From a virus: a stretch of DNA of 64,000 bases. The stretch covers positions 62,001 to 126,000 of IMG/VR virus record IMGVR_UViG_3300032298_001038. One strand, 5' to 3'. Shown one piece after another: positions 2,546 to 23,932 of the stretch. The position numbers and the translations under genes were made by a program. Position 1 is the first letter of the stretch; every line of letters starts with the position of its first letter. The notes under the pieces were generated by a model. It saw nothing but the letters and a program-made list of their open reading frames with translations. It had not been told where the DNA came from and ran no database searches.

Positions 2546-2914
2546 TTAATTGTTTTCGGCGCGGGATTGCAGAAACGACGAATAGACTTTCGCCGCTGCG
2601 GCGAGTTCTTTTCCCATCGCTTTGACTTCGTCGAGGATGTCACACACTTCCTGCGCGTCGTCGTCTGAAAATTCTTCGATTTCGATCTTGGCTTTGACGA
2701 GCCGGATGTGGGCGCGTGAGCGACGGATAGTCTCAAACTGAACGTCCATGTCGATTTTTTCAAGCGCCTCTGCAATAGCCTTGGCGATCGGATTGCTGTC
2801 CTTGCTCTGCTCGACGAGAGATTCAATGTCTCGCTCGATCTGCCGAAGCCGAATCAGCCCTTCATCGATCAAATCCAAAATCTGTGTGCGCTCGTTATCG
2901 GTGAATTGCATCAT
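2546..2914 (-). CDS. Coiled-coil hypothetical protein (122 aa)
   Basis: ATG at 2914 follows an excellent AGGAGG site; a second ATG directly follows the first. The protein is almost wholly helical with heptad-like hydrophobics from residue 8 to about 115 (LDLIDEGLIRLRQIERDIES, then IRLVKAKIEIEEF), suggesting a coiled-coil dimer. It is the first gene after the 2935-2975 terminator, so it probably needs readthrough or an unseen promoter. Function unknown. Confidence 0.8.
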   Translation of the reverse strand: MMQFTDNERTQILDLIDEGLIRLRQIERDIESLVEQSKDSNPIAKAIAEALEKIDMDVQFETIRRSRAHIRLVKAKIEIEEFSDDDAQEVCDILDEVKAMGKELAAAAKVYSSFLQSRAENN

Positions 2915-2934
2915 GCAACCTCCTGAATAGATAT

Positions 2935-2975
2935 GAAAAAACCGGGGCGGGTAGATTGTTGCCTACCCGCCCCGG
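2935..2975 (-). terminator. Strong intrinsic terminator, perfect 14-bp stem
   Basis: Minus-strand stem 2975-2962 pairs perfectly with 2954-2941 around a 7-nt loop and is followed by a T6 tract (2941-2936). It closes the transcript that crosses the pentanucleotide-periodic tract at 2985-3718. Confidence 0.85.
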
Positions 2976-2984
2976 TCGCAGTTT

Positions 2985-3718
2985 GCCAATGCATGCCTCG
3001 CCGGAACAAGCCTCATCAGGCATCGCCCAGCCTGTCCAAGCCTGCCGCGGATAGCCGAACCACTCCCGGCCTCTCCTCGCCCTGCCTAACCCTGCCTGCC
3101 GAACCGAGCCTGACCCTGCCTCGCGGAGTCAAGCCCTGCCGTGCCTGCCGTGTCTATGCCTCTGCCCGCCGGTCCCGGCCACTCCCGGCCAAGCCCAGCC
3201 TCGCCTGCCGTGTCTATCCCGGCCGGGGCGCTCCCGGCCTTGCCATACCTCGCCTGCCGAGCCTATCTGGCCGCGTCGAGACGAGCCGTGCCTAACCATG
3301 CCTGCCATCCCGCGCCCGTCATACCGCGCCTTGCCACGCCTGTCCGAGCCTGCCGTGTCTAAGCGACACCGATCCTCACCAAAGCATGCCGTGCCTTGCT
3401 CTGCCTGCCTCGCCATGTCGCTGCTCGCGCGTCCACGCCGTGCCTTACCCAGCCTGCCGGTCCAAACCGAACCTTGGCTATCCACACCTCACCGCTCGTC
3501 GCCCCGCCTCGCCGTGCCATGCCTGCCCAGCCCTGTCAAGCCGAGCCATGCCTAGGCATGCCGAACCGAACCGCGTCCAGTCCAAGCCTGCCGCGTCGTG
3601 CCTAGCCGAACCTAGCGTTGCCCTACCAAGCCTGCCGTGTCTATGCAGTTGCAAGCCAATTCTTGCCCATCCCGGCCACGCCTAACCCAGCCTGCCGTGT
3701 CTAAATGCTCAGGCTCGA
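2985..3718 (-). repeat. Five-nucleotide-periodic GGNNN tract, non-coding
   Basis: On the plus strand CC recurs about every fifth base (NGCCN units such as agcct, tgcct, cgccg), with occasional phase slips. The minus strand reads as a (GGNNN)n array. A 14-mer, GCCTGCCGTGTCTA on plus, is repeated exactly at 3143, 3203, 3348, 3630 and 3690. Five-base periodicity is incompatible with a normal coding frame, and the overlapping open frames have no ribosome sites and low-complexity products. The tract lies between the stop of the 161-aa gene and the terminator at 2935-2975, so it would be transcribed as a roughly 750-nt G-rich RNA or 3' UTR. Confidence 0.85.
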
Positions 3719-3721
3719 TGC

Positions 3722-4207
3722 TCAGGCTCGCGCCACGCGCCGATTGCGCCGGCGTGTGGCGTTGCGGGCTACACGATCCAAAGCAGCGAACACAGGCGTC
3801 AACTCGCGCAGCGATTCGTACTTGCGTCGAACTCGCTGCAACTCGTCAATCGCCTGCTGCAACAACTGTGCGCGCATTTCGGCACTGCTCATCACGTCGG
3901 TGAGTGCACGATAGCCACCACCGCCGCTTTTGCGATCCGAAACGAGCGACACGAACATCGGCATACGAACACTGCCGTTCGGCGTGTCGAGTACTTCGAT
4001 GTTCAACCGGATGATCTTCCTCGCCTGCTCCAATCGAAACTGGTGCGCGGCTTCGGTGTCATCCCATTCAAACTCTGCGTGGAGCGCAGTGTTTTCATCA
4101 CGAGCAAACTCCACAACCGCTTCGGGCGGAACGCGGCCGTCGTGCTCGTTGTAAATCTGCGTCAGTTCTTCCTTGATGGAAGAGATTGCTCTACGGCGTC
4201 TCGCCAT
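3722..4207 (-). CDS. Conserved phage hypothetical protein (161 aa)
   Basis: ATG at 4207 follows AAGGAG. The motif HAEFEWDDTEAAHQFRLEQA around residues 43-62, followed by MFVSLVSDRKSGGGGYR, resembles a widespread phage family I remember with no assigned role: an acidic EWDD helix, a SLxSDR strand and a GGGYR loop. The C-terminus is an Arg-rich helix (ATRRRNRRVARA). It follows the 267-aa gene by 17 nt, and the pair may be a functional unit. Transcription past its stop enters the periodic tract. Confidence 0.8.
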   Translation of the reverse strand: MARRRRAISSIKEELTQIYNEHDGRVPPEAVVEFARDENTALHAEFEWDDTEAAHQFRLEQARKIIRLNIEVLDTPNGSVRMPMFVSLVSDRKSGGGGYRALTDVMSSAEMRAQLLQQAIDELQRVRRKYESLRELTPVFAALDRVARNATRRRNRRVARA

Positions 4208-4224: not shown

Positions 4225-5028
4225 TCAACCCTTCACACACTCGAAATGACCCCAGCCCATACCGCACGAGTTGGGCGAGTCAGCGCGGCCTTCGCCGACG
4301 CCGACCTGCATCCCGGCACGCAGCATGAGGTTGGCGATGTCAGCCGGCGTAAACATGTCGGCGTCGAAGCGCACGCGAACCTTGGCCCGCCACGATTCAA
4401 ACATGGCGCGCACACGAATATCAGCGACGCCGGTCGCATTGCGCACCGTGTGCTCGACGTGCTTCGGCTTGGCGTCCACCAACTTGCCCTTGCCATCCGC
4501 GTACAGATGAATCAGCGGCGTACCCTCGACAGCATCGAAGCCGTCGGCCTCGACGAAGATGGCCTTCTTCGCCTTGGTCTTGTGATAACCCACGACCACG
4601 CAGGAGTCAACCAGCGCGTTTCGCAGGGCACTTGCCGGGATGCCACACCAACCCTTGGTCGAGCGGTGCTGGGCTTCCTTGAAGTTCGCCTCGAAGTCCT
4701 TGGCCTCGCGCTTCTTGCCCTTGGAAGCCGTGGAGCCGGCGGCCTGCTTCTCGCGCATCATCTCGCGTGCCTTCTTGCCGAACGCCAACTGCACGTACGG
4801 CGCCGTGCCGCGGATCACGATCTCCACAGTCTTGAAGTTGGGCGCGGTGATCGTCACGCCCAGCCTTTCGGCGACGGCGATATCGATCTTATTACTCGGG
4901 TCAAGGTGAGTTTCAACGATATCTTTTACGCGCTTACGAAACACGCCATCTTCAATCTTGGATGACTTGGATTGCGCGGTCTTAGTCTTGGTCGCCGTTT
5001 TCTTCGAACCCTTGAGCATCGTTGCCAT
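4225..5028 (-). CDS. Conserved phage protein with Gly-rich C-terminal hairpin (267 aa)
   Basis: ATG at 5028 follows AAGGAA. A Lys/Thr/Ser-rich basic N-terminus (1-25) precedes a domain with TVEIVIRGTAPYVQLAFG, then a GWCGIPASALRNALVDSC motif. The C-terminal AGMQVGVGEGRADSPNSCGM is followed by GWGHFEC. The architecture of an RRM-like fold with a glycine-rich loop is reminiscent of RAMP-type folds, but that is only a pattern resemblance. I recall the family from many phages without a known role. The terminator at 5043-5075 lies just upstream, so it needs readthrough or its own promoter. Confidence 0.85.
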   Translation of the reverse strand: MATMLKGSKKTATKTKTAQSKSSKIEDGVFRKRVKDIVETHLDPSNKIDIAVAERLGVTITAPNFKTVEIVIRGTAPYVQLAFGKKAREMMREKQAAGSTASKGKKREAKDFEANFKEAQHRSTKGWCGIPASALRNALVDSCVVVGYHKTKAKKAIFVEADGFDAVEGTPLIHLYADGKGKLVDAKPKHVEHTVRNATGVADIRVRAMFESWRAKVRVRFDADMFTPADIANLMLRAGMQVGVGEGRADSPNSCGMGWGHFECVKG

Positions 5029-5042
5029 GTCTATTCCTTGGT

Positions 5043-5075
5043 AAAAGAAAAACCCACGGCGAAAGTGCCGTGGGT
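5043..5075 (-). terminator. Intrinsic terminator downstream of the tmRNA
   Basis: Perfect 8-bp stem (5074-5067 with 5060-5053, CCCACGGC/GCCGTGGG), 6-nt loop, then TTTTTCTTTT on the minus strand. It ends transcripts from the tmRNA/tRNA cluster, or a short RNA starting near 5130. Confidence 0.85.
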
Positions 5076-5094
5076 TTAAATAACAAAAGCGTGC

Positions 5095-5165: not shown

Positions 5166-5248
5166 TTTTTGACGTCGGTTACGCCGACGTACGTACACGT
5201 ATCATAGAGTAGGTTATCCCAACCAGTTCGCTAGAACGCACGCATAAG

Positions 5249-5602
5249 TGGAGCCGGCGGGAATCGAACCCGCGTCCAGAAACGTTTCCAGTAAGAACGT
5301 CTACATGCGTAGCCAGTTATGTGTCACCAACTGGCAATGCTATCCGCACACTTAGCGGAGTCAGGCGGTTTACCGCCATCTCGCCCGATTACTTTGCCGG
5401 ACCGACGCAGGTGGCTTACCACCATCAACCTGATTGGGCAATGAGGCTCAGGTCGCCCCACTCGCGGTCCTGACTAGGTCAGGCAGCGAGGGCCGGAGCA
5501 GAAGCGCCGGTTAGAAACTTAATCGGCTTTTAACGTGGCCAACCGATCAACCACGGCATGCAATCCAAACCTTCTCCGTCCTGTCGATACCAGTACGGCC
5601 CC
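5249..5602 (-). ncRNA. ssrA: tmRNA (ssrA) with tag ending ALAA
   Basis: The 354-nt RNA has a tRNA-like acceptor: GGGGCCG (5602-5596) pairs with CGGCTCC (5256-5250), and the discriminator is A at 5249. The 3' part carries a standard T-arm (GCGGGTTCGATTCCCGC). The 5' part has the tmRNA signature TACTGGTATCGACAGG and GGTTGGCCACGTTAAAAGCC. The internal reading frame GGC..GCC (5508-5482) encodes GASAPALAA followed by UGA (5481-5479), possibly with a preceding Thr codon. CCA is not encoded. With SmpB it would rescue stalled ribosomes and tag nascent chains for ClpXP-like proteolysis. It ends the RNA cluster, directly after tRNA-Leu(CAA). Confidence 0.92.
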
Positions 5603-5604
5603 AA

Positions 5605-5678
5605 TAGCGCGGGTGGGATTCGAACCCACAACCTATTGATTTTGAGTCAATCGCCTCTGCCAGTTGGGCTACCACGCC
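5605..5678 (-). tRNA. tRNA-Leu (CAA)
   Basis: 74 nt. Acceptor GGCGTGG/CCGCGCT with two G-U pairs, anticodon stem ATTGA/TCAAT with loop CTCAAAA (CAA anticodon), T-arm GTGGG-TTCGAAT-CCCAC. The variable loop is only 5 nt, not the long arm normal for Leu, so identity rests on the anticodon. It ends 2 nt before the tmRNA. CCA is not encoded. Confidence 0.85.
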
Positions 5679-5690
5679 AAACTATACCAC

Positions 5691-5763
5691 TGACCCCACG
5701 GGGATTCGAACCCCGGTAAACGGAACGAAAATCCGTTGTCCTAGGCCACTAGACGATGGGGCC
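5691..5763 (-). tRNA. tRNA-Glu (TTC)
   Basis: 73 nt. Acceptor GGCCCCA/TGGGGTC, anticodon stem ACGGA/TCCGT with loop TTTTCGT (TTC), T-arm CGGGG-TTCGAAT-CCCCG. CCA is not encoded. Confidence 0.93.
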
Positions 5764-5817
5764 AAACGTATTAGAAAACCGACGCAAAACGTCGAGTTTC
5801 CAATACGAGTTGGGCAG

Positions 5818-6111
5818 TCACTTTTCGGACCAAAACATTTCAGCACGCGCGATAGCGGTTTTGATATTTTTGTGTCCGACCGGATTTGCTGAATGTACCA
5901 CGACTGTCAAGGGCGCCAATGTCTTTTTGTAAGCGGCCTCTTCAATAAATTTGGCAATATCGTAGCCGGTTTTTTCTTCGCCAAGGTCGTGATCGAGTGA
6001 CAGGTGCGTGATGCGGCCAATACGCAGCGCAGTGATTGCGGCGTCTGCGGTTTTTAGCCAGACGTCGAACTCGGGCGGCTTTGGTCGAACATCGTCTACC
6101 CAAACTTTCAT
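5818..6111 (-). CDS. Cyclic-phosphate-processing receiver domain protein (cREC, 97 aa)
   Basis: The whole protein is one compact receiver-like domain. It has MKVWVDDVRP at the N-terminus (acidic pair Asp6-Asp7), SLDHDLG at 38-44, TGYD at 48-51 and the diagnostic HSANPVG at 73-79. These match the cREC family, which comparative genomics links to processing of cyclic phosphate ends in RNA repair. ATG at 6111 overlaps the upstream stop (ATGA). The gene lies directly upstream of tRNA-Glu, tRNA-Leu and tmRNA in the same transcript, which fits an RNA-end-processing role. The biochemistry is inferred from the family, not visible here. Confidence 0.82.
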   Translation of the reverse strand: MKVWVDDVRPKPPEFDVWLKTADAAITALRIGRITHLSLDHDLGEEKTGYDIAKFIEEAAYKKTLAPLTVVVHSANPVGHKNIKTAIARAEMFWSEK

Positions 6112-6272
6112 TGTTTTTTCTTTCGTTTAGTCGCCTTGCGCGATGTTTTGCCTGTGTCGTGCGAATCCAAATCAGTCACGACGATATCAATGCGCCGGCG
6201 CAGCAAATCCAAATCGCGGCTGATTTTGCTCAGCATAGCGCGCATTTCACTCAGCGACAGTGGTGTCGACAT
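6108..6272 (-). CDS. Small basic-tail hypothetical protein (54 aa)
   Basis: The start at ATG 6272 (MSTPLSLSEMRAML) is set by a perfect AAGGAGG eight nt upstream; a longer frame upstream lacks a site. It forms one amphipathic helix (residues 7-36) and a Lys/Arg-rich tail (KTSRKATKRKKKQ), suggesting nucleic-acid or ribosome contact. It overlaps the cREC gene by 4 nt and the upstream gene by 26 nt. No family recognised. Confidence 0.7.
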   Translation of the reverse strand: MSTPLSLSEMRAMLSKISRDLDLLRRRIDIVVTDLDSHDTGKTSRKATKRKKKQ

Positions 6273-6693
6273 TTGGTTCCTCCTTGGCGCGCGACATCTG
6301 CGGGAAACCAGTTGCCGCAAGCCACGCAGCAACTTTGTCTGTATCTAACGCAAACTGGACGCCGACGATAAACCTGCCGCCAAGACCAACAATTTTAGCC
6401 GATGGCGGATCAAACTGCTCGTTAGCGATTGCGAGTAGTTCGCCGTGCTCAACGAGGTTTGGCCAATACTCGTTTTGTTCGGTTGTCCAGACGTGAGCAT
6501 CATCGACCACCAATGATGTAATCAGGTCGGTAAGGGAACCGACAGCCGGAGGGCGATCGAGCACGTCAGGCTGCGGGCCAATAAAGTTTCGTAGGTCGAC
6601 GTCATCCTGAAACGTCACGCGCTTGTCGGGATGCACGGTCAGCATCTTGGCGAACTTCTTGACCGTGTACTTGTACTTTTTCTCGTCAGTCAT
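6247..6693 (-). CDS. Hypothetical protein (148 aa)
   Basis: I choose the ATG at 6693 (MTDEKKYKYTVKKF), preceded by TGAGGA, over the upstream start that would overlap the previous gene more. The sequence is mixed alpha/beta: an N-terminal basic segment, a central LTDLITSLVVDDAHVWTTEQ segment and a GLGGRFIVGVQFALD strand near residue 115. No motif identifies a family. Confidence 0.75.
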   Translation of the reverse strand: MTDEKKYKYTVKKFAKMLTVHPDKRVTFQDDVDLRNFIGPQPDVLDRPPAVGSLTDLITSLVVDDAHVWTTEQNEYWPNLVEHGELLAIANEQFDPPSAKIVGLGGRFIVGVQFALDTDKVAAWLAATGFPQMSRAKEEPNVDTTVAE

Positions 6694-6700
6694 TGGGTCC

Positions 6701-6973
6701 TCATAGTCTTTCCAGCAAGCCGCGTAGTGCCGCTGCGATCTGCGCGCAATCCTCGTCATCGTCATTATCGGTGTAGGCGTCGCGGGCCTGCTCTAACGCC
6801 GCCCGCTCCTCGTCGGTGAGTGCGGCGTCCATCTGCACAATCACGTTGCCGTCGCAGACCGACAGCGTGGCGTCCTGATCGGCGAGGCGGCGGATGGCTT
6901 CGCGGTGCTTTTCTAATTCTGCCGCAAGAAGTTTATTTGCTGCGCGGAGATTTGTGAGTTCACAGTCCGTCAT
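6701..6973 (-). CDS. Acidic helical hypothetical protein (90 aa)
   Basis: ATG at 6973 follows GGAG. The N-terminal 30 residues form a coiled-coil-like helix (LRAANKLLAAELEKHREAIR). They are followed by a short strand, a DEERAALEQARD helix and a very acidic TDNDDDED stretch. It lies in the small-gene run between tRNA-Ile and tRNA-Glu. Function unknown. Confidence 0.75.
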   Translation of the reverse strand: MTDCELTNLRAANKLLAAELEKHREAIRRLADQDATLSVCDGNVIVQMDAALTDEERAALEQARDAYTDNDDDEDCAQIAAALRGLLERL

Positions 6974-6975
6974 CG

Positions 6976-7182
6976 TTAACTCCTTGCGCCCATGATGTGG
7001 GCAACGTGGCCGTACATTCTACTCTTGCGCTGCGCGGCCTGCACCTCGTTTTCCATGTCTTGCAAGATTCGAAACAGGCGCTCTTGCGAATCTTCGGGCA
7101 GCAGGGCGATGTCATTCGCCAGTTTCTGGTTCTGCCCGCGCTGCCGTAGGAGCATACTCTGGATGTGCCGTAAAAAACTCAT
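6976..7182 (-). CDS. Small helical hypothetical protein (68 aa)
   Basis: ATG at 7182 with AGGAGAG upstream. It is predominantly helical and basic at the N-terminus (MSFLRHIQSMLLRQRGQNQ). It overlaps the 3' end of the 154-aa gene by 71 nt, which is unusual but supported by the good ribosome site. No recognised family. Confidence 0.65.
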   Translation of the reverse strand: MSFLRHIQSMLLRQRGQNQKLANDIALLPEDSQERLFRILQDMENEVQAAQRKSRMYGHVAHIMGARS

Positions 7183-7576
7183 CGTCTCTCCTTTTCCGCG
7201 ATTCGGCCAGCAGTGTCTGAATGTCTGCGTCTGAATAGACTACGCCGTCTATTTCAAACGAACCGTCGTCGACGCCATTGACGGTTTCAGGGATGTCGTA
7301 CGGCAAGTTGTCTACGTACGAGTCGTCGTGCTGGTGCACGTGTGCGCCGACTTCGACGGTGTTGGCGAATTCCATGATGCACAGCGCTTCCGGCGGCCAT
7401 TCGCCGAAACAGCCGCGAGCGCCGGGGAAGATTAAATCTACCGGCACGAGGCAATTCAAACCCTTCATGGTTTGCCAACGCCGTTTGATATCTTCAAACT
7501 GTCCGGGCGTGTACAACGCCCACCAGTATTGATAGCCGAACTCTTCCTCGATCCGAACCAGAATGTTTTTTTCCAT
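7112..7576 (-). CDS. Hypothetical protein (154 aa)
   Basis: ATG at 7576 has AAAGGAG at good spacing and lies directly downstream of tRNA-Ile. The middle contains GCFGEWPPEALCIMEF and a His-containing HVHQHDD segment (about residues 79-85), then an acidic C-terminal half. The clustered His/Asp residues could bind a metal, but no family motif is clear. Confidence 0.75.
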   Translation of the reverse strand: MEKNILVRIEEEFGYQYWWALYTPGQFEDIKRRWQTMKGLNCLVPVDLIFPGARGCFGEWPPEALCIMEFANTVEVGAHVHQHDDSYVDNLPYDIPETVNGVDDGSFEIDGVVYSDADIQTLLAESRKRRDDEFFTAHPEYAPTAARAEPETGE

Positions 7577-7589
7577 GTGGCTCCTTTAG

Positions 7590-7665
7590 TAGGGCGGGTT
7601 GGAGTCGAACCAACCTATGGGCACCTTATAAGAGTGCTGGATGCAACCGGCTTACCTTCCGCCCC
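7590..7665 (-). tRNA. tRNA-Ile (TAT)
   Basis: 76 nt. Acceptor GGGGCGG/CCGCCCT, anticodon stem GCACT/GGTGC with loop CTTATAA (TAT, reads AUA), T-arm GTTGG-TTCGACT-CCAAC. It reads the rare AUA codon. CCA is not encoded. Confidence 0.9.
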
Positions 7666-7714
7666 AAAAGCGGGCGCCGGGGAACTTGGGCGATTCGCCC
7701 GGCGCCCGCCGTGA

Positions 7715-8098
7715 TCAGCGGTAACGCTTACAAGCGTACCACCGACCATTGCGACCGCAGGCTACGCCTTGGTCAACAACGCGCATGCCGCTATTCGAGT
7801 AGCAGCAGTTGTTAAGTGCCTGCTCGGGCGTCGCACCCATGCCAACGCCTTCGTAGCCAGAGTTGCCACCGAAATGCTGGACCACGCCGCGGCTGGCCAT
7901 CATCTCAGCAACACCCTGCGCAGACCCGGTGCCGCCAACAGCGTCGGACTGCGAGGTGTAGGCATAAACACGTTCCTGCGAAACTGGAGCCGTCGTGGCT
8001 GCCGGCGCAGAATACGTGTAGTTACGCCGCCAACGGGGAGCCGCCTCGACCGTGGACGCGGCGAGAACGACAAACAGACACATCAGAATGCGAACCAT
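7715..8098 (-). CDS. Exported planctomycete-type small protein (127 aa)
   Basis: ATG at 8098 follows GGAGGATTT. A signal peptide (MVRILMCLFVVLAASTVEAA, cleavage near 20) is followed by a low-complexity linker. The C-terminal domain reads VAEMMASRGVVQHFGG, YEGVGMG, ALNNCCYSNS, VVDQGVACG and RWYACKRY. This order of motifs (Met-Ala near a His-x-x-Gly, EGVG, CCY, GVAxG, WYAC) resembles a family of secreted proteins I associate with Planctomycetes. Its function is unknown. It is the best host clue in the window and was probably acquired from the host. Confidence 0.8.
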   Translation of the reverse strand: MVRILMCLFVVLAASTVEAAPRWRRNYTYSAPAATTAPVSQERVYAYTSQSDAVGGTGSAQGVAEMMASRGVVQHFGGNSGYEGVGMGATPEQALNNCCYSNSGMRVVDQGVACGRNGRWYACKRYR

Positions 8099-8167
8099 AA
8101 ATCCTCCGTGATTGTGCCGGTGGTGTGCCCGGCTAACGAGAATCCAAACCCCACACCGGGCAAAAAA

Positions 8168-8464
8168 CTAGCGACCGACAGGCTTGGTGAACTTGGTGAG
8201 TTCCTTCACCCTGTCACCGTTCTCGACGTAAAGCCACGTCTTGGGTCGCGGATCGTCGGGCTGATTAAACGCACGGAACTCGTCGAGGTTGTAGCAGTAC
8301 GCCGCAGCCTCGAACGGGCCGTTATCGACTACACACACGACGGCGCCCATGTCCTCCTTGATGAAGAACTCAGCCTCGTCGCGGGTGATTTCGATAGCGT
8401 CCAAGTTTTGCTTGAGCGCCGCAGCCTTGTTCTTGGGCTGCTGCGTTTCGATGTAATAACCCAT
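8168..8464 (-). CDS. Hypothetical protein (98 aa)
   Basis: The longer frame runs back into tRNA-Val, so the start is ATG 8464 (MGYYIETQQP), which has AAAGGAA upstream. The product is mixed alpha/beta with an N-terminal helix of Lys/Ala and an EFFIKEDMGAVVCVVDNGPF core. I recall similar short proteins beginning MGYYIET... in other phages with no assigned role. Confidence 0.78.
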   Translation of the reverse strand: MGYYIETQQPKNKAAALKQNLDAIEITRDEAEFFIKEDMGAVVCVVDNGPFEAAAYCYNLDEFRAFNQPDDPRPKTWLYVENGDRVKELTKFTKPVGR

Positions 8465-8490
8465 CTGGTTCCTTTCGTTAAAAGGTCCAA

Positions 8491-8564
8491 TAGGCGCAGA
8501 GGGATTCGAACCCCCGACCTTCGGTATGTAAAACCGACGCACTAACCAACTGTGCTATGCGCCT
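8491..8564 (-). tRNA. tRNA-Val (TAC)
   Basis: 74 nt. Acceptor AGGCGCA/TGCGCCT (perfect 7 bp), anticodon stem TCGGT/ACCGA with loop TTTACAT (TAC), T-arm GGGGG-TTCGAAT-CCCTC. CCA is not encoded. Confidence 0.92.
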
Positions 8565-8572
8565 ACGCGAGA

Positions 8573-8833
8573 TCAGAGGTCTTCGGCCGTCTCGCGGACG
8601 TCCTTGTCGCCATCATCGGCGTACATCGCGAACATGCTGTCTTCGCGGTAGTACGAGATCAGATCGCAGACCTTGTCGTCAAGATCAGCCACGAGATCGC
8701 CGAGATCGTCGGGCATATCTCCGCCCAGAACCTCGCCCGTCTCCGGGTCGATGTTCATGCCTTCAGCGTCGAACACGTTCTTCTTGACATTGTCCCACGC
8801 AGTAACCAGCAGTTCAATTTCAAGCGGCAGCAT
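8573..8833 (-). CDS. Acidic hypothetical protein (86 aa)
   Basis: ATG at 8833 follows CAGGAG. The product is strongly acidic throughout (PDDLGDLVADLDDKVCDLIS, then YADDGDKDVRETAEDL). Strong negative charge on a small phage protein is compatible with DNA mimicry, but nothing specific supports that. It ends 9 nt before tRNA-Val. Confidence 0.75.
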   Translation of the reverse strand: MLPLEIELLVTAWDNVKKNVFDAEGMNIDPETGEVLGGDMPDDLGDLVADLDDKVCDLISYYREDSMFAMYADDGDKDVRETAEDL

Positions 8834-8853
8834 TGTGCGCTCCTGTACGGGTG

Positions 8854-9186
8854 TTAGTCGGGAATCACGTAATCAGGCGGCAACGGCACCCAACTCTTGG
8901 CGCGCTCCGCGTCGTAAGGCATCCACCACGGCGCGTCGTCCGCGTCGCAAACGCCCCAGTCGTTGTTGATAAACTTGTTGTGATTGATAGCGTTCACAAC
9001 ATGATCCGGCAGGTCGACGATGACTTCCTCGCCGTCTTCGTTTTCGGTCAAACCCTTGGTTTCTACGGTCGGGTCAAATCGACCGATGTGCAGCCCGACA
9101 GGGTGACCGAAGTAATAGACCATTTGGCCTTCTTCCGGCAGCCGATCCGAACACCGAATCCAACCGCGTTCTTCAGCAGATCGCAT
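8854..9186 (-). CDS. DUF551-like protein (110 aa)
   Basis: The N-terminal W-I-R-C-S-D-R-LPEEGQMV and the C-terminal SWVPLPPDY match the two ends of the DUF551 pattern (WIxVsdrLPexG...V and HWMPLPexP). The middle is longer than usual and acidic. ATG at 9186 follows AAAGGAA. DUF551 proteins are common in phages and have no known function. Confidence 0.7.
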   Translation of the reverse strand: MRSAEERGWIRCSDRLPEEGQMVYYFGHPVGLHIGRFDPTVETKGLTENEDGEEVIVDLPDHVVNAINHNKFINNDWGVCDADDAPWWMPYDAERAKSWVPLPPDYVIPD

Positions 9187-9203
9187 ACGGTTCCTTTTGT
9201 TAT

Positions 9204-9479
9204 TTATTCGTCTTCTTCTTCGCCGCCGAACATTTCATTCCAGCATTTGTCGCAAATGCCAGAAATAAGAAATTCACGCTCGGCTGCGGTGAGATACGAG
9301 AAACAATCCTGCGCGAAACCGCCGTTACGGAAACGTGCCAAATCTTCAATCTTGGCGCGTACCGTCTGCTTTTCGCTGCACGAATAACAAGGCCCCGACA
9401 CCTCCGCGTAGGTGGCGTCAGCATTGTCGACGGCGCAAATGCCGTCACGGAACGCATACTTTTCGATCAGAAAGGACAT
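9204..9479 (-). CDS. Zinc-binding hypothetical protein (91 aa)
   Basis: Two CxxC pairs, CYSC at about 31-34 and CDKC at about 76-79, suggest a single zinc ribbon spanning a helical insert. The C-terminus is acidic (GGEEEDE). ATG at 9479 follows AGGAGA. The gene is directly downstream of tRNA-Leu(TAA). Confidence 0.75.
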   Translation of the reverse strand: MSFLIEKYAFRDGICAVDNADATYAEVSGPCYSCSEKQTVRAKIEDLARFRNGGFAQDCFSYLTAAEREFLISGICDKCWNEMFGGEEEDE

Positions 9480-9492
9480 TGAAATCTCCTAA

Positions 9493-9576
9493 TGGGGTCG
9501 GTGGGACTTGAACCCACACGGGATTACTCCCAACGGATTTTAAGTCCGTTGCGGCTGCCGATTACGCCACGACCCC
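9493..9576 (-). tRNA. tRNA-Leu (TAA)
   Basis: 84 nt, class II. Acceptor GGGGTCG/CGACCCC, anticodon stem ACGGA/TCCGT with loop CTTAAAA (TAA), long variable arm GGGAGTAATCCC, T-arm GTGGG-TTCAAGT-CCCAC. CCA is not encoded. Confidence 0.93.
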
Positions 9577-9625
9577 AATGCCGCCAGCCGAGTAGCCCCG
9601 GTTAGAACTGGCGGAAAGGGTCATG

Positions 9626-9925
9626 TCAGGCAAACCGGTCCTGCATACGAGCATTCATCCACTCGTTCATGTTTTCGAGTGAACCCCAGCAAGAGCCGGG
9701 CGCTTCGTTGTAGAACCACTGGACGTAGAGTTTGAGCAGCCCGATGTTCTGCTCGTCGGCGCAACCCACGGCACGCCGCAGGTCGTTGGTGATGACGCCG
9801 GTCAGGAAGTCGCCGGGCTTGATGCCCTGTACGACATAGCGCCGAATGGCTTCCTGCATGTGGGGCGGAATGGTCGCGTAATCGCCCCGAAACTCTACGT
9901 CGAATTCAAACTTGGTTGCGGTCAT
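9626..9925 (-). CDS. Hypothetical protein (99 aa)
   Basis: The real start is ATG 9925 (MTATKFEFDVEF), which overlaps the upstream stop by 4 nt; the longer frame above it only shadows the upstream gene. The sequence has the layout of a host-range or nucleotide-metabolism accessory protein I cannot name: an AIRRYVVQGIKPGDFLTGVI helix-turn, then NDLRRAVGCADEQN. I recall this GIKPGxFLxxVL...A..rAD..N pattern from several phages, without assigned function. Confidence 0.8.
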   Translation of the reverse strand: MTATKFEFDVEFRGDYATIPPHMQEAIRRYVVQGIKPGDFLTGVITNDLRRAVGCADEQNIGLLKLYVQWFYNEAPGSCWGSLENMNEWMNARMQDRFA

Positions 9926-10167
9926 CTCTGCGTCCAGACGTACCACTGATTGTTTTCGTATTTCCACCACTGCCCGTTGTGGTACATGACACGGGCCTGT
10001 GGTTGCGGCTGCGCTTGCCCCGCGGGCTGCATCATCGGCTGCTGCGCCGGAGATTGCAACTGTTGCGGTTGAACGCCTAATTTCTGCTGCATTTTGTCGG
10101 CACCGATCTGGGCGAGCGGTTGCAAAAACGGCATGAGCAGCGTGAAGAGCAAAACAAACAACTGCAT
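9922..10167 (-). CDS. Exported or membrane-anchored Gln/Pro-rich protein (81 aa)
   Basis: ATG at 10167 follows AAGGAGG. Residues 1-20 are hydrophobic (MQLFVLLFTLLMPFLQPLAQ), a signal peptide or anchor. A Gln/Pro/Met-rich linker (33-58) leads to a Trp/Tyr-rich end (YHNGQWWKYENNQWYVWTQR), the YxNGxWWxY style I associate with planctomycetal surface proteins. It is coupled by 4-nt overlap to the 99-aa gene. It probably acts at the envelope; function unknown. Confidence 0.75.
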   Translation of the reverse strand: MQLFVLLFTLLMPFLQPLAQIGADKMQQKLGVQPQQLQSPAQQPMMQPAGQAQPQPQARVMYHNGQWWKYENNQWYVWTQR

Positions 10168-10213
10168 GGAAAACCTCCTTGCACAAGAAAGCCAGCGATC
10201 CTCCGCCGGACAA

Positions 10214-10285
10214 TGGGGCCGGTGGGATTCGAACCCACAACCAAAGGATTAAAAGTCCCTTGCGCTACCGTTGCGCCACAGCCCC
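10214..10285 (-). tRNA. tRNA-Lys (TTT)
   Basis: 72 nt. Acceptor GGGGCTG/CGGCCCC, anticodon stem with loop CTTTTAA (TTT), T-arm GTGGG-TTCGAAT-CCCAC. First tRNA downstream of promoter D. CCA is not encoded. Confidence 0.92.
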
Positions 10286-10304
10286 AACCGCCGTTGTTAC
10301 ACGA

Positions 10305-15408: not shown

Positions 15409-15741
15409 TTACGGCTTATAGGTCAACATGTCTATTGTAACGTTTGTGATTCGTGATTCGTTTTGCGGCCCGGTATACAGCAGCACGTCATGAACGTATT
15501 GCGTTATTGCGTTTATATTTTTTGTTGGGTCTAGGTAGGTCAACGTATTCACATTGAATTGCGTAATACGCGTCGAATTTTGGTTTTGGTTCTCGTAGAT
15601 TAATCTATCGATGACCAGTTGCGTAATGCGTGCGTGCGGTTTTGTTTGGTCCGTGTAGTCGAGCCTATCCAAACTCAGTTGCGTGAGGCGCGTTTCTAGA
15701 AAAGGCTCACGCGGCGTACGAAAACCTAAATGACCGCGCAT
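15409..15741 (-). CDS. Tandem-repeat virion protein (110 aa)
   Basis: The protein is built from five degenerate repeats of about 20 residues of the form R-I/L-T-Q/N-x-x-x-D-x-L-x-Y-x-(T/D/E). Examples are ETRLTQLSLDRLDY, ARITQLVIDRLIYE, TRITQFNVNTLTYL and NAITQYVHDVLLYT. Each looks like one strand pair. It overlaps the collagen-like gene stop (TAATG) and precedes the LamG-like gene. The repeats suggest a beta-solenoid or multi-blade structural element of the tail. It contains no other motif. Confidence 0.75.
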   Translation of the reverse strand: MRGHLGFRTPREPFLETRLTQLSLDRLDYTDQTKPHARITQLVIDRLIYENQNQNSTRITQFNVNTLTYLDPTKNINAITQYVHDVLLYTGPQNESRITNVTIDMLTYKP

Positions 15742-17594
15742 TATGGCACCAAATCACCGGTGAGAATCCACTGATTATCTGCGATCATAATTAACGTCGC
15801 TGTACTGTATGTATCGCGTAAGGTTGGCCCGGGTGTAGAGAACAGCGTGCAGCCAGAACCAGCCACACACGTTACAGAACCCGAACCAATGTTAATGATA
15901 TCTATGTTTACGCCCGGCAAAATTGTGGTGTATGGACTCGGGAATGAGTACCGTTGTGGCACGGTGATTGTAATGTTTGACGCCGAGTTGCACAGGAGTA
16001 TTTTTCCCGCGTCACTCGCTACGAAAGTGTAATTAGCGCTGACATTTGTAAAACTTTGAGAAAGCGCAAAATTACCTTGAGGTCCGGCAGCGCCGCTTGG
16101 GCCTGTCGGACCTGTTGCGCCGCCGGGCAAACCCTGCGGGCCGGTCTCGCCCTGTGGGCCTGTTGCGCCTGACGGGCCAGCGGGACCTGTGGCGCCAGTT
16201 ATACCGATACCAGTCGCACCACGCAGCCCGGCTGTACCTTGCGGCCCGGTTGGTCCCAAAGGCCCTGTTGGTCCGGTCGGACCAGAAACACCAGTCGCCC
16301 CTGTCGGTCCGTTTTCGCCTTGAATTCCGTCTTCGCCCTGCGGACCTGTTGGTCCGGACGGGCCGGTGGCGCCAAGCGGACCAATTTCACCTTGCGGCCC
16401 TGTAGGCCCGTCGACACCTGTTGGACCAGTTGAACCGACGACACCAGTAGCGCCTGTTTCGCCGGTTTCTCCTTGATCGCCTGTAAGACCAATTAGACCT
16501 GTAGGTCCGGTTTCGCCTTGTGGTCCCGTCGCGCCTGTTTCTCCAGTTGGACCTGTCGGACCTTCAATGCCCGTTGGTCCTGTCGTGCCCTGCAAACCAG
16601 TTGGACCTGTGGCGCCAGATGGTCCTGTTGCGCCAGTTGGACCGGCAATGCCTTGTGGTCCCTGCTCGCCCTGCGGGCCTTCGCTGCCGTTTGTACCCGG
16701 CAAACCCTGCGCGCCCGTGGCGCCTTGAATGCCCGTTGCCCCAGTCGGCCCGGGAATACCGGTCACACCAGTCGCGCCGGTAGCGCCCTGCTCGCCGGTG
16801 TCGCCCGTCAAACCTGTGGCGCCCGTGGCGCCGTCAACACCTGTTGCGCCTGTCGGACCTTCTATACCCGTTGCGCCGCGAAGGCCAGACGCACCTGTCG
16901 GGCCGACGGGTCCATCAACACCTGTTGCGCCTGTTGCACCAGCGCCGCCTTGTACGCCCGAAGCGCCGGTCGCACCTACCGGGCCGAAAGGACCAACCGC
17001 GCCTGTCGCGCCGATTTGACCCATAGGCCCTGTTGCGCCAGTGGGGCCTGTCGTGCCTCGTGGGCCAGTAGGGCCTGTAGTTCCTTGTGTGCCAGTTACA
17101 CCCGTTGCGCCAATGACGCCTGTTGAGCCGGTTACACCTTGCGGACCCGTCGCGCCTGTAATACCTGCGGCGCCAGTAGACCCTTGAATACCAGTCGCGC
17201 CAGTTGCGCCTGTTAAACCTTTTGTACCTTGCGGCCCAGTCGCGCCGCTGGCGCCCATCGGGCCAACCATGCCAGTAACGCCGACAGCGCCGCTTGGCCC
17301 GACAGCGCCTGTAGCGCCCTGCGGTCCCGTGGCGCCACGTACGCCGGTCGCACCGACGCCGATAATCTCCGCGGGAATCTGCGCGACGGGGACTTTACCG
17401 TCGCTGCCAAGGCTCGCGACGCCATTGGGTTGGCCGCGATCGCCCCACGTCAGCGCGCCTAAAATATCTAAAAGGCGACCAACCGTGGTTTTTTTAGTTA
17501 TCGGCGGTTGTGCCTGTTGATCGACAATCGCCAGTAGGTCATCGCGATTCGGCGAATCTTTCAGCGGCAGATCGGATATGCGTTTTTTGGCCAT
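15741..17594 (-). CDS. Collagen-like tail fibre (617 aa)
   Basis: Residues 1-75 form an N-terminal attachment module ([24 protein letters not shown] ... [17 protein letters not shown]) shared with the 77-aa protein at 23955-24188. About 420 residues of Gly-x-y repeats (GATG, GPTG, GPQG) follow, predicted as a collagen-type triple helix. The C-terminal domain (about 505-617) is beta-rich and non-repetitive. The trimeric rod suggests a long fibre with a receptor-binding or trimerisation tip. ATG at 17594. The AT-rich gap and terminator upstream make this the probable first gene of the lower tail operon. Confidence 0.9.
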
Positions 17595-19747: not shown

Positions 19748-22700
19748 TCAGTCGGTGATAACGTAGAACGTGCTGGCGTCCTTGGAAGCGAGCGCGTCGT
19801 ATTCGGCTTGCGTCAGGCTGACGATGTTGGTGATCTGGTCGGCACCGGCGATTCCCGTGGTGACGCTGGTGATCGCGCCGCCCGTGTAGGCTGTGGTCTG
19901 TGTTGTGCCATCGGGGAACGTAAGGCCGCCTGTGCCAGACACACCTACAATCTTGAGGTTGTTAACAAACGTGGTGTCCGCAGCGTCGGCTGTGATGGAA
20001 GAACCGATGATGTGAGCGTTTGATTGACTGTTGGTGTTGTTGCTCTGGCCGCCAAGAACCGAAGAATAGGCGCCGCTAGCGGTGTTGTCTTCGCCGCCAC
20101 TGATGGTGCTGCGGTTGCCGCTGGCGGTGTTGTTATAGCCGCCGACAACGCTGTAATTGCCGTTAGCGGTGTTGCTTCTGCCGCCGCTAACGGCGCTGTA
20201 GGCGCCGCTGGCGGTGTTGCCAAGGCCGCCGACGACGGCGCTGTAGTTGCCGCTAGCGGTGTCGCCGCTGCCGCCGCCGACGACGCTGGCGTAGCCACTG
20301 GCGTTATTTTGATTGCCGCCGACGAGGCTGGCGTAGTTACTGGCGTTGTTCTGTCTGCCGCCGCCCACAGTACCGTAGGTGCTGCTAGCAGTGTTATTAT
20401 TGCCGCCGCCGACGGTGCTGCGGTCGCCGCTGGCGGTGTTGTTATAGCCGCCGCTGACGGTGCTGTAGTTGGCGCTAGCGGTGTTCTGTCTGCCACCGCT
20501 GACGGTGCCGTAGTAGCCGCTGGCGTTGTTGTTCTGGCCGCCGCTGACGGTGCTGGAGGTGCCGCCAGCAGTGTTTTGATAGCCACCGCTCACAACGCTG
20601 TACAGGCCGCTGGCGGTGTTGTTTCTGCCGCCGCTGACGGTGCTGCGGTCGTGCGTGGTGGCGTTGTTCCTGCCGCCGCCGACTACGCTGGCGTAGCCAC
20701 TGGCGGTGTTTTGATAGCCACCGCTCACAACGCTGTAAACGCCGTAAGCCTCGTTATCAGTACCGCCACCAACAGTGCTGCCCACCTCACTGGCGGTGTT
20801 CCTCCCCCCGCTGACGGCGCTGTACAGGCCGCTGGCGGTGTTTCCCCGGCCGCCAAGTACGCCGGAGTATGTTCCGCTGGCGGTGTTTTCCCGGCCGCCG
20901 CTGACGGCGCTTCGAGTGCCGCTGGCGGTGTTGCTTTCGCCGCCGCTGACGGTGCTTCGAATGCCGTTGGCGGTGTTGCCTGTGCCGCCGCTAACGGTGC
21001 TGTAGTAGCCGCTGGCGGTGTTGGCACCGTTGACAGGCACAATGCTGTTTGACCCAGAACCGGTTGTGTACGGGCTGGACCCGCCGCCGGACGAGATTTC
21101 CCAGCGATTAGTCGACGTTGAGTAAGCAAGGGTCGCGCCGTTAGTAGCCGAACCGGCCCAGCCCTCTGAACCATACGGGTCAAGAATCCACGGAGACGTT
21201 GCGGCCGTCCACGACGACCCCATGTTGTCAGACTTCAGTACTTGATTCATGCCGGTCGGACTCGGAACAGAAGCAGAAGAAGGCTGTTCAGCCACCCACT
21301 GGTTCATCATGCTGTCCCAAGTCAGCACGTAACCGTCTGTGATACTACCTGCGGGAAAAACGCTTCCGGCTTCCCAGTTGTTATTTAAAGTATTCCACAC
21401 AAGATGCGGCGACGAACTAGAACCGCTGGGTAGGCTGCCAGAGGCGGCAGTGGTTTGAGTTGTGCCGTCGGGGAACGTGATGCCTCGATTGCTGTCCACG
21501 ATCTTCAGCGCATTGACGAATGTCGTGTTCGCAGCGTCGGCTGTGATACCAGAGCCGATGATGTGGGCGTTAGCGTTGTTGTTCGTACTGTTGTTCTGGC
21601 CGCCAAGTACGCTGGAATAGGCGCCGCTAGCGGTGCTGTTGTAGCCGCCGCTGATAACGCCGAAGACGCCGCTGGCGGTGTTGCCCCAGCCGCCGCTGAC
21701 GGTGCTGTAGTCGGTGTTGGCGGTGTTCTGTCTACCGCCGCCGACGGTGCTGATATACCCGCTGGCGGTGTTGCTAAAGCCGCCGCTGACGGTGCTGTAG
21801 TTGCCAAGTGTATCGTTGTTATCACCGCCGCCAACGAAACTGTAACTGCCGGTCGCGTTGTGCGAAAAACCGCCGCAAATAGTCGCCGCGGGGCCGTCAG
21901 CAAGATTAAATTGCCCACCGCATATCAGCGCGTGCGTACTACCAGTTGCCGAATTGTGACTGCCGCCATGTACGGCCGAGTAATTAACAGAAGCCGTGTT
22001 GTCAAAACCACCCCCGACGACGCTGGCGTAGCCACTGGCGGTGTTTTTATAGCCGCCGCTCACAACGCTGGAAACGCCGCTAGCGGTGTTCTGTCTGCCG
22101 CCGCCCACAGTACCGTAGGCGCCGCTAGCAGTGTTATTAATGCCGCCGCCGACGGTGCTGCGGTCGCCGCTGGCGGTGTTGGTACCGTTGACAGGCTGAA
22201 TGCTGTTTGTGCCAGAACCGGTTGTGTACGGGCTGGACCCGCTAGCCGTAGTCTGCGTTGTGCCGTCTGGGAACGTGATGCCTCGACCGCTGTCCACGAT
22301 CTTCAGCCCATTGACAAAGGTTGTGTCCGCAGCGTCGGCTGTGATACCAGAGCCGATGATGTGGGCGTTAGCGTTGTTGTTCGTACTGTTGTTCTGGCCG
22401 CCAAGTACGCTGGAATAGCCGCCGCTAGCGGTGTTGCCTGTGCCGCCGCTGACGGTGCTGGAGATGCCGCTGGCGGTGTTGTTTACGCCGCCGCCTACGA
22501 CGCCATAGCCGCCGGTTACCGAATTCGACCGGCCGCCCGCAACAACGGTATAGCCAGCCGACGCGCTCGACAAATTATTGGAGCCGCCGCCGACCACGGG
22601 ATACACGCCGCCCGCGGCTGTGTTGTTACGCCCGCCGCCGACAAAAGCACCGGTAGTGCCAGCGCTGTTGAGCGCGCCGCCCACCACAGCAGAAATGGCG

Positions 22701-23932
22701 CCACTAGCGACGTTGCTCTCGCCTTCGAGGTTGCTTTCGTTGATCCAGCCGCCACCGGCAACAACGGCGCCAATGCCGTTGGCGGTGTTTTCCCGGCCGC
22801 CGCTCACAGTAGAATAGGTGCCGCTGGCGGTGTTGCCCAAACCTCCGGCGACCGTTGCCTCAGACATGCCGCTAGCGAAGTTGCCGTTGCCGCCGCCGAC
22901 GGTGTTGGCGTAACCGGCTGCGGTGTTGTTTATGCCGCCCAGCACGCTGGAATAGTTTTGGTTGGCAACGTTGTTCTGGCCGCCAAGTACGCTGGAGTAT
23001 GTTCCGCTGGCGGTGTTGTTCTGGCCGCCAAGTACGCTGGAGTATGTTCCGCTGGCGGTGTTGTCTTCGCCGCCACTGATGGTGCTGCGGTTGCCGCTGG
23101 AGGCGTTGCTTTTGCCCCCGCTGACGGCGCTGCACACGCCGCTGGCGATGTTGCCCCAGCCGCCGCCGACTACGCTGGTGGAGCCGCTGGCGGTGTTGTT
23201 TCTACCGCCGCTGACGATGGTAGCGTTCTCGCTGGAGGTGTTGTTAATTCCGCTGCTGACGGCGCTGTATTGGCTGCTGGCGTTGTTGCCAAAGCCGCCG
23301 CAGACCACGCTGTAGTCGCCGCTGGCGGTGTTGTTAATTCCGCTGCTGACGGCGCTGGTGTAGCCGCTGGAGGTGTTGTTCCTGCCGCCGCTGACGGTGT
23401 TGGCGTAACCGGCTGCGGTGTTGTTCTGGCCGCCAAGTACGCTGGAGTATGTTCCGCTGGCGGTGTTGTTACCGGTGACAGGCACAATGCTGTTTGTGCC
23501 AGAACCGTCCGTATACACGCTACTCCCGGCGGTACCTTGCGCACCTGTTGCGCCTTCCGGTCCTGTGGCGCCGGTAGGACCTTCCGGTCCTGTGGCGCCC
23601 GTGGCGCCGTCTAAACCAGCAACGCCTGTGGCGCCCGTGGCGCCGTCTAAACCAGCAACGCCTGTTGCGCCCGTGACGCCGGCTGGACCAGCAACGCCTG
23701 TTGCGCCCGTGACGCCGGCTGGACCAGCAACGCCTGTGGCGCCCGTGACGCCTGTAACTCCAACGCCACTACCACCGCCGCCAGTAGACCAGTTCGCAAC
23801 ATTACCGTCCGCGTCTAACGCGTAGATTTTCTTATCCGCAAGATTCAGCGCCAACTCGCCGGGGACGAGGTCGCTGGCGGCTGGCTCTAAACCGGGAACG
23901 TCACTGCGCTTGTGGCGAATTTTGTTAGACAT
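19748..23932 (-). CDS. Giant tail fibre with collagen-like and YadA-head-like repeats (1394 aa)
   Basis: N-terminal fibre module (about 1-48; [26 protein letters not shown]) is followed by a short collagen-like GATG stretch (about 57-135). A very long array of about 14-residue repeats of the form (N)NTASGxYSxVSGG comes next. These repeats resemble the left-handed beta-roll of YadA-type trimeric adhesin heads. The array is organised as three large modules that each start [12 protein letters not shown] and end [12 protein letters not shown]. The C-terminus ([23 protein letters not shown]) is a phage-fibre tip motif. ATG 23932 follows ACAGGA. It is the main receptor-contacting fibre candidate. 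Confidence 0.9.

What the first reader, a model, noticed from the sequence alone, without database searches (positions are those of the whole stretch)
2985..3718. A 730-bp five-nucleotide-periodic non-coding tract with a repeated 14-mer
The plus strand has CC about every fifth base over the whole tract, with units such as agcct, tgcct, cgccg. The minus strand is (GGNNN)n. GCCTGCCGTGTCTA recurs five times exactly. Neither a coding frame nor a known phage repeat explains a 5-nt period. Transcribed as RNA, (GGNNN)n could form stacked two-tier G-quadruplexes. It ends at a perfect 14-bp terminator, so a discrete RNA is likely. This is the strongest candidate for an undescribed element in the window.
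Basis: partly seen in the sequence, partly recalled or inferred. Interest (0 to 1): 0.8.

Follow-up and report, generated by a model that had tools for sequence, protein, structure and literature searches.

The report
Phage-encoded RNA-guide array (VIPR system)
The odd five-base pattern is a row of about a dozen guide-RNA segments of a VIPR system, a CRISPR-like RNA-guided DNA-binding system that phages are thought to use against rival phages; the kind was described in 2026 and this is a new member, with its partner protein gene next door.

Summary
Window 2962-3703, minus strand, is a strict GG-Y-N-N array (lag-5 z = 12.9; G 89%, G 82%, Y 81%, NN nearly random). It is not an undescribed element. 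It matches the guide-RNA array (vrRNA) of a VIPR system (Doudna-lab preprint, PMC13142463, 2026). The Vipr protein gene lies upstream at 4225-5028(-). A profile of its close relatives finds the solved SUSP1 Vipr (PDB 36pp, E=2.4e-6), a wider one at E=2.2e-41, and its predicted fold matches CRISPR Cas7/Csm3 RAMP proteins. Of 120 viral contigs found by the DNA pattern alone, 81 carry a Vipr gene; of 154 tract-free contigs none does. A conserved companion gene (3722-4207) sits between vipr and array, and a 16-pair terminator (2940-2977) ends the transcript. The recurring GGCAGGC, including the five 14-mers, is a guide delimiter: a one-base register slip every 5n-1 bases, typical of this Vipr lineage. 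Inferred mechanism: vrRNAs on Vipr bind DNA by gapped pairing of the NN dinucleotides (1-nt skip) and repress a competing element. No target of this array could be established; expression and processing are untested. Verdict: new member of a known kind, probably of the 'staggered array' architecture.

The parts
4225..5028 (-). vipr: RAMP-fold guide-RNA-binding protein (267 aa; low-confidence N-terminal tail plus RAMP core, G-loop-like GVGEGRADSPNSCGMGWGHFEC)
   Evidence: PHROG 4652 E=8e-17; 8-sequence lineage profile vs PDB 36pp 'SUSP1 Vipr protein' E=2.4e-6; wider profile E=2.2e-41; AlphaFold pLDDT 84.6, Foldseek tops are Csm3 / type VII Cas7 E=3e-5, prob 1.00
3722..4207 (-). conserved companion gene, candidate vap (VIPR accessory protein), phrog_15946
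   Evidence: E=1.3e-24 to phrog_15946; homologues in 32 of 95 Vipr loci, and the 2 hits without Vipr carry GGYNN tracts; in annotated phages it follows nearly the same strains as the tract (vs 6); confident fold without PDB match
2962..3703 (-). vrRNA array, about 13 GGCAGGC-headed guide segments of GGYNN units
   Evidence: period-5 tract; phase composition and 11 phase slips all of one type
3637..3696 (-). guide g1: NN = TG TA GT CG TG AA TT TT AC AT, then AGACAC linker
   Evidence: GGCAGGC-delimited segment
3593..3636 (-). guide g2: TT AG AA TA TC TA AC GC
3528..3592 (-). guide g3 (one register slip): TC TC AT TA AT TC TT AG TG core
3459..3527 (-). guide g4: AT AC GA GG GA GC GA GT TA AA (shared with relative L249), then TC TT CC
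3410..3458 (-). guide g5: TG AA AC GT CG GA GC AT GA (identical in L249)
3355..3409 (-). guide g6: AG AA AC AT TT GA TC GT TT, then AGACAC (identical in L249 except one linker base)
3307..3354 (-). guide g7, replaced in L249
3259..3306 (-). guide g8, mostly shared with L249
3210..3258 (-). guide g9: GA AT AA CG GC CC CG TA, shared with L249
3150..3209 (-). guide g10: GA TG TT CG GT CG CC GG GA AT, replaced in L249
3101..3149 (-). guide g11: AC AG TT TC GA AG CA TC TC, replaced in L249
3047..3100 (-). guide g12: AG TA AG GA GA CG GT TC TA GC (first 8 NN shared with L249; the only core difference is Y: T/C)
2978..3046 (-). last segment g13, decaying into the terminator
3690..3703 (-). first of five 14-mer delimiters TAGACACGGCAGGC (others start at 3630, 3348, 3203, 3143 on the + strand)
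2940..2977 (-). intrinsic terminator of the array transcript (16 pairs, T-run)
   Evidence: the relative L249 has a GC-rich hairpin plus T-run at the same place
5050..5077 (-). terminator between tmRNA gene and vipr, so the VIPR operon starts after it

Best explanation
The tract is the guide (vrRNA) array of a phage-borne VIPR system: operon vipr (4225-5028) - companion gene (3722-4207) - array (2962-3703) - terminator (2940-2977), all on the minus strand. The transcript holds about a dozen guides of roughly 8-13 GGYNN units, separated by GGCAGGC, where the 5-nt register slips by one base. Vipr subunits would each hold one GGY. The NN dinucleotides would pair with double-stranded DNA with one target base skipped between dinucleotides, and the complex would silence a competing phage or satellite. 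Shown here: the sequence grammar, the Vipr homology and fold, the tract-protein linkage, and guide turnover between relatives. Taken from the published system: the gapped pairing rule and silencing. Inferred: expression, processing into separate or overlapping vrRNAs, and function in this phage.
For: Grammar: phase composition G 89%, G 82%, C/T 81%, N and N near uniform, the GGY/NN motif of PMC13142463. Protein: a 5-seed profile without SUSP1 finds SUSP1 Vipr at E=8.9e-7 among 15,269 ORFs; PDB 36pp 'SUSP1 Vipr protein' E=2.4e-6 and 2.2e-41; fold matches Csm3/Cas7. Linkage: Vipr in 81 of 120 pattern-found contigs, 0 of 154 tract-free ones; same strand in 80 of 82, median distance 12.5 nt. Among annotated phages nearly the same strains (cluster-F mycobacteriophages, Gordonia phages, cyanophage Cy-LDV1) carry tract, Vipr and companion. 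Positive control: the same detector finds three GGY tracts at the published VIPR locus of SUSP1. Guides are partly shared and partly replaced between window and L249, with many indels of exactly 5 nt, and in conserved blocks Y changes most (7/81, 6 of them C/T).
Against: No natural target was established: 8-NN seed scans of viral contigs with g4, g5, g10, g11, g12 and a 9-NN genome scan with g1 gave hit numbers that I judge compatible with chance. No RNA data. The window array has more imperfect GGY units than SUSP1 and lacks a recognisable invariant 3' tail. A single-sequence phmmer search of the window protein does not reach SUSP1 Vipr; the link needs a family profile.
Confidence: 0.95

Rival explanations
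1. A long non-coding RNA whose (GGNNN)n forms stacked two-tier G-quadruplexes that act by structure.
For: GG every 5 nt permits two-tier quadruplexes; the ordinary fold is slightly more stable than shuffles (z -2.9).
Against: Does not explain the fixed third base Y (81%), the free NN pair, the 5n-1 delimiter spacing or the strict linkage to a RAMP protein gene.
Confidence: 0.02
2. A binding platform for an RNA-binding protein without targeting, like the TRAP protein's NAGNN repeats, or a sponge RNA.
For: 5-nt period as in TRAP sites (own knowledge); a protein partner gene adjacent.
Against: NN positions are hypervariable and turn over in blocks between close relatives, as guides do; the homologous SUSP1 system is a DNA-targeting one.
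Confidence: 0.02
3. A translated pentapeptide-repeat protein (three frames give the same G-x-A-x-x pattern); Donkeykong gp48 and UmaThurman gp40 are annotated so.
For: Annotated CDSs over such tracts.
Against: 2-10 stops in every frame of the window tract; indels between relatives are often 5 nt, which breaks any frame.
Confidence: 0.005
4. A decayed vrRNA array: VIPR-derived but no longer functional here.
For: 11-18% of the GG letters in the window array are off consensus, and several units are imperfect.
Against: Intact vipr and companion frames, 84% and about 60% identical to those of relatives; whole guides kept letter for letter in L249 while others were exchanged.
Confidence: 0.06

Closest known systems
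VIPR (Viral Interference Programmable Repeat) systems, PMC13142463, type II of phage SUSP1
   Same: RAMP-like Vipr gene, accessory gene, adjacent intergenic GGY/NN repeat RNA on the same strand, phage-borne, hypervariable NN
   Different: Vipr of another branch of the family tree; companion gene with no detectable sequence relation to SUSP1 vap1; one continuous punctuated array of about 13 guides in 740 nt instead of about 100-nt vrRNAs with a structured tail
VIPR 'staggered arrays with overlapping vrRNAs' mentioned in the same preprint (its fig. S18)
   Same: Back-to-back guides without separate tails; a one-base register shift at each GGCAGGC
   Different: Cannot be compared in detail: the supplement could not be read here, so the type number is open
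Class 1 CRISPR-Cas RAMP effectors (Csm3, type VII Cas7)
   Same: Predicted fold of the Vipr core; subunits that would line up along a guide RNA
   Different: No CRISPR array, no cas genes nearby, guides are periodic GGYNN rather than unique spacers
VIPR-bearing cluster-F mycobacteriophages (Donkeykong, Brocalys), Gordonia UmaThurman/ODay/Ecliptus, cyanophage Cy-LDV1
   Same: Vipr, companion gene and GGCAGGC-punctuated array
   Different: Gene order varies (array between vipr and companion in several of these phages, after the companion in the window)

Membership tests
VIPR system | Vipr protein homologous to SUSP1 Vipr | tested here: met
   profile without SUSP1 hits SUSP1 Vipr E=8.9e-7 and PDB 36pp E=2.4e-6
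VIPR system | RAMP fold (RRM core, G-loop, thumb) in Vipr | tested here: met
   AlphaFold model; the best-ranked PDB matches are all CRISPR RAMP complexes; G-loop-like GxGxxRP motif conserved; the thumb was not examined separately
VIPR system | RNA of tandem YNNGG repeats, GGY conserved, NN hypervariable | tested here: met
   (at DNA level; the RNA itself was not observed)
VIPR system | 9-16 repeats per vrRNA | tested here: inconclusive
   GGCAGGC-delimited segments hold about 8-13 NN; true RNA ends unknown
VIPR system | invariant structured 3' tail on each vrRNA | tested here: inconclusive
   No separate tail seen; some segments end in AGACAC; the preprint also describes overlapping arrays
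VIPR system | accessory vap gene | tested here: inconclusive
   a conserved companion gene exists, but whether it is one of vap1-6 could not be checked
VIPR system | targets DNA by the 1-nt skip rule | tested here: inconclusive
   no target found for window guides; elsewhere in the family one guide (L244) matches 26 of 30 letters with 1-nt skip in an HNH gene beside the vipr of L149, in frame with the skips at wobble positions
VIPR system | vrRNA expressed and bound to Vipr | not testable with these tools
   needs small-RNA sequencing and pull-down
Class 1 CRISPR-Cas | CRISPR repeat-spacer array and cas genes | tested here: not met
   no Pfam, NCBIfam or PADLOC hit for the window Vipr; no repeat-spacer array in the locus
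Hammerhead-interspersed VIPR arrays | hammerhead ribozymes in the array | tested here: not met
   no hammerhead match in 2900-3800 even at E<=1

The most novel reading that the evidence does not exclude
In this Vipr lineage (38 of 91 rows, support 99, marked by the phrog_15946 companion) the guides are written in one continuous GGYNN track, and the one-base slip GGCA|GGC every 5n-1 bases is the punctuation at which Vipr filaments start or stop. Overlapping vrRNAs would then be read out of a single long RNA without separate tails, and the companion would be an undescribed accessory factor for this read-out.
Probability: 0.35. Interest if true: 0.65.

Novelty: new member of a known kind. Interest (0 to 1): 0.55.

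Why it matters
VIPR is a very recently described RNA-guided DNA recognition system and is argued to predate CRISPR. A complete locus in a 198-kb phage record with about 13 guides adds a natural set of decodable targets. The lineage survey gives simple recognition marks (GGYNN track, GGCAGGC every 5n-1, phrog_4652 plus phrog_15946). With these, unannotated or mis-annotated arrays can be found in well-studied, easily grown phages such as cluster-F mycobacteriophages, where the function can be tested directly.

Tried and rejected
(1) 14-mer as a shared element: its 119 or more hits in viral contigs are mostly chance, though it also fished out some GGYNN arrays. (2) Coding: no open frame. (3) Rfam: no match above its cut-off. 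(4) Companion gene by PDB fold and sequence: no match; among viral models only two uncharacterised proteins, so 'DNA-binding' would be a guess. (5) Targets: six collection scans with decoded guides. g5 reads as (W/C)(K/N)TVR(D/E)A(I/M)(D/E), resembling a motif I recall from C5 DNA methyltransferases, and two of its hits (L287, L293) look like that motif (TLPWKTVRDAIADLPDPE), but the hit numbers are not above my rough chance estimate and the last dinucleotide fails there. (6) Self-targets in the own genome: best 1-nt-skip matches are no better than those of skips 0, 2 and 3. (7) A general skip-rule test over 363 guides is dominated by low-complexity guides; only L244 against L149 stands out.

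Full report
Observation. The lag-5 signal is strong (C autocorrelation 0.48, z 12.9) and restricted to 2962-3703. The rest of the 198-kb record has nothing like it. The 14-mer occurs five times, only here. By phase the minus strand reads G (89%), G (82%), Y (81%), N, N. All 11 register slips found by Viterbi are of one kind, minus one base, and 9 of them fall in GGCAGGC. No frame is open.

It is not alone. A DNA search found the same kind of tract, alike in pattern at 65-75% identity, in cluster-F mycobacteriophages, Gordonia phages and cyanophage Cy-LDV1. Where genes are annotated, the GG strand is the coding strand.

Identification. A text search returned the preprint PMC13142463. It describes VIPR systems: a small RAMP protein (Vipr), an accessory gene, and vrRNAs of YNNGG repeats whose NN dinucleotides pair with DNA with one base skipped. 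In the window the gene two places upstream, 4225-5028(-), is the Vipr. By tblastn it hits nearly the same phages that the tract hits. A profile of five window-lineage proteins finds SUSP1 Vipr at 8.9e-7. Eight-sequence and 46-sequence profiles find the deposited structure 36pp, 'SUSP1 Vipr protein', at 2.4e-6 and 2.2e-41, with nothing else significant. The AlphaFold model (pLDDT 84.6) matches Csm3 and type VII Cas7 subunits (E about 3e-5, probability 1.00). My tract detector also recovers three GGY tracts beside vipr in SUSP1.

Independent linkage test. Contigs chosen by DNA pattern alone: 81 of 120 carry a Vipr homologue, although many are truncated and some are plain microsatellites. Contigs from other scans without a tract: 0 of 154. 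Tract and gene share the strand in 80 of 82 cases, at a median distance of 12.5 nt.

Lineage. The companion gene 3722-4207 (phrog_15946) occurs in 32 of 95 Vipr loci; the two hits without Vipr have GGYNN tracts on short stretches. Those loci form nearly all of one well-supported Vipr clade (38 rows, SH-aLRT 99), away from SUSP1. In arrays of loci with the companion, GGCAGGC occurs 11.3 times per kb against 1.0 in other Vipr arrays, mostly at spacings 44, 49, 54, 59, 64, 69 and 74, that is 5n-1. The five 14-mers are the long form of this delimiter. This fits the preprint's 'staggered arrays with overlapping vrRNAs', but I could not read its supplement.

Turnover. Between the window and its close relative L249 (Vipr 84% identical) some guides are identical over 50-100 nt and others are replaced, with frequent 5-nt indels. 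In conserved blocks the Y position changes most (7 of 81, six C/T) while NN changes little (6 of 155), as expected if NN carries the information. The numbers are small.

Targets. Decoded guides g4, g5, g10, g11 and g12 (8-NN seeds, viral contigs) and g1 (9-NN, genomes) gave 35, 11, 3, 24, 8 and 2 stretches. Few extend, and I judge the numbers compatible with chance. No self-target stands out. In a test of 363 guides from all held arrays against 2.4 Mb of held DNA, one complex guide stands out: L244 against an HNH gene just upstream of vipr in L149, 26 of 30 letters with 1-nt skip, in frame with skips at wobble positions. I put its chance expectation at roughly 0.003-0.03. It is suggestive only.

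Mechanism and limits. Shown: grammar, partner protein, linkage, operon with terminator, guide turnover. From the preprint: gapped pairing and transcriptional silencing. Inferred: expression, processing, the role of GGCAGGC as a guide boundary, and the target class.

Noticed in passing
window 5246-10286: tmRNA gene (tag GASAPALAA) and six tRNA genes directly upstream of the VIPR operon; the VIPR locus sits in this RNA-gene-rich stretch.
   Followed up: no
window 19748-23932 (-) and 15741-17594 (-): A 1394-aa protein of VSGGxxNTASG-type repeats with a collagen-like ([10 protein letters not shown]) N-terminal part, and a 617-aa collagen-like protein; probably tail-fibre or virion-surface proteins. 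They account for the tandem repeats that the repeat finder reports at 16-24 kb.
   Followed up: partly
L343 1665-1988 (Gordonia phage UmaThurman gp40) and L125 2437-2823 (Donkeykong gp48): GenBank 'hypothetical proteins' that lie on GGYNN vrRNA arrays and are probably not genes; UmaThurman gp39 is a Vipr (E=1e-54).
   Followed up: yes
L149 3667-4149 (-): HNH endonuclease-like gene beside vipr, matched by a guide of another VIPR contig (L244): possible VIPR-against-VIPR targeting.
   Followed up: partly
window 3705-3730: Perfect 13-bp tandem duplication ATGCTCAGGCTCG covering the end of the companion gene, just before the first guide.
   Followed up: no
window 5818-6111 (-): cREC_REC cyclic-phosphate-processing receiver domain protein (Pfam E=1e-25).
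   Followed up: no
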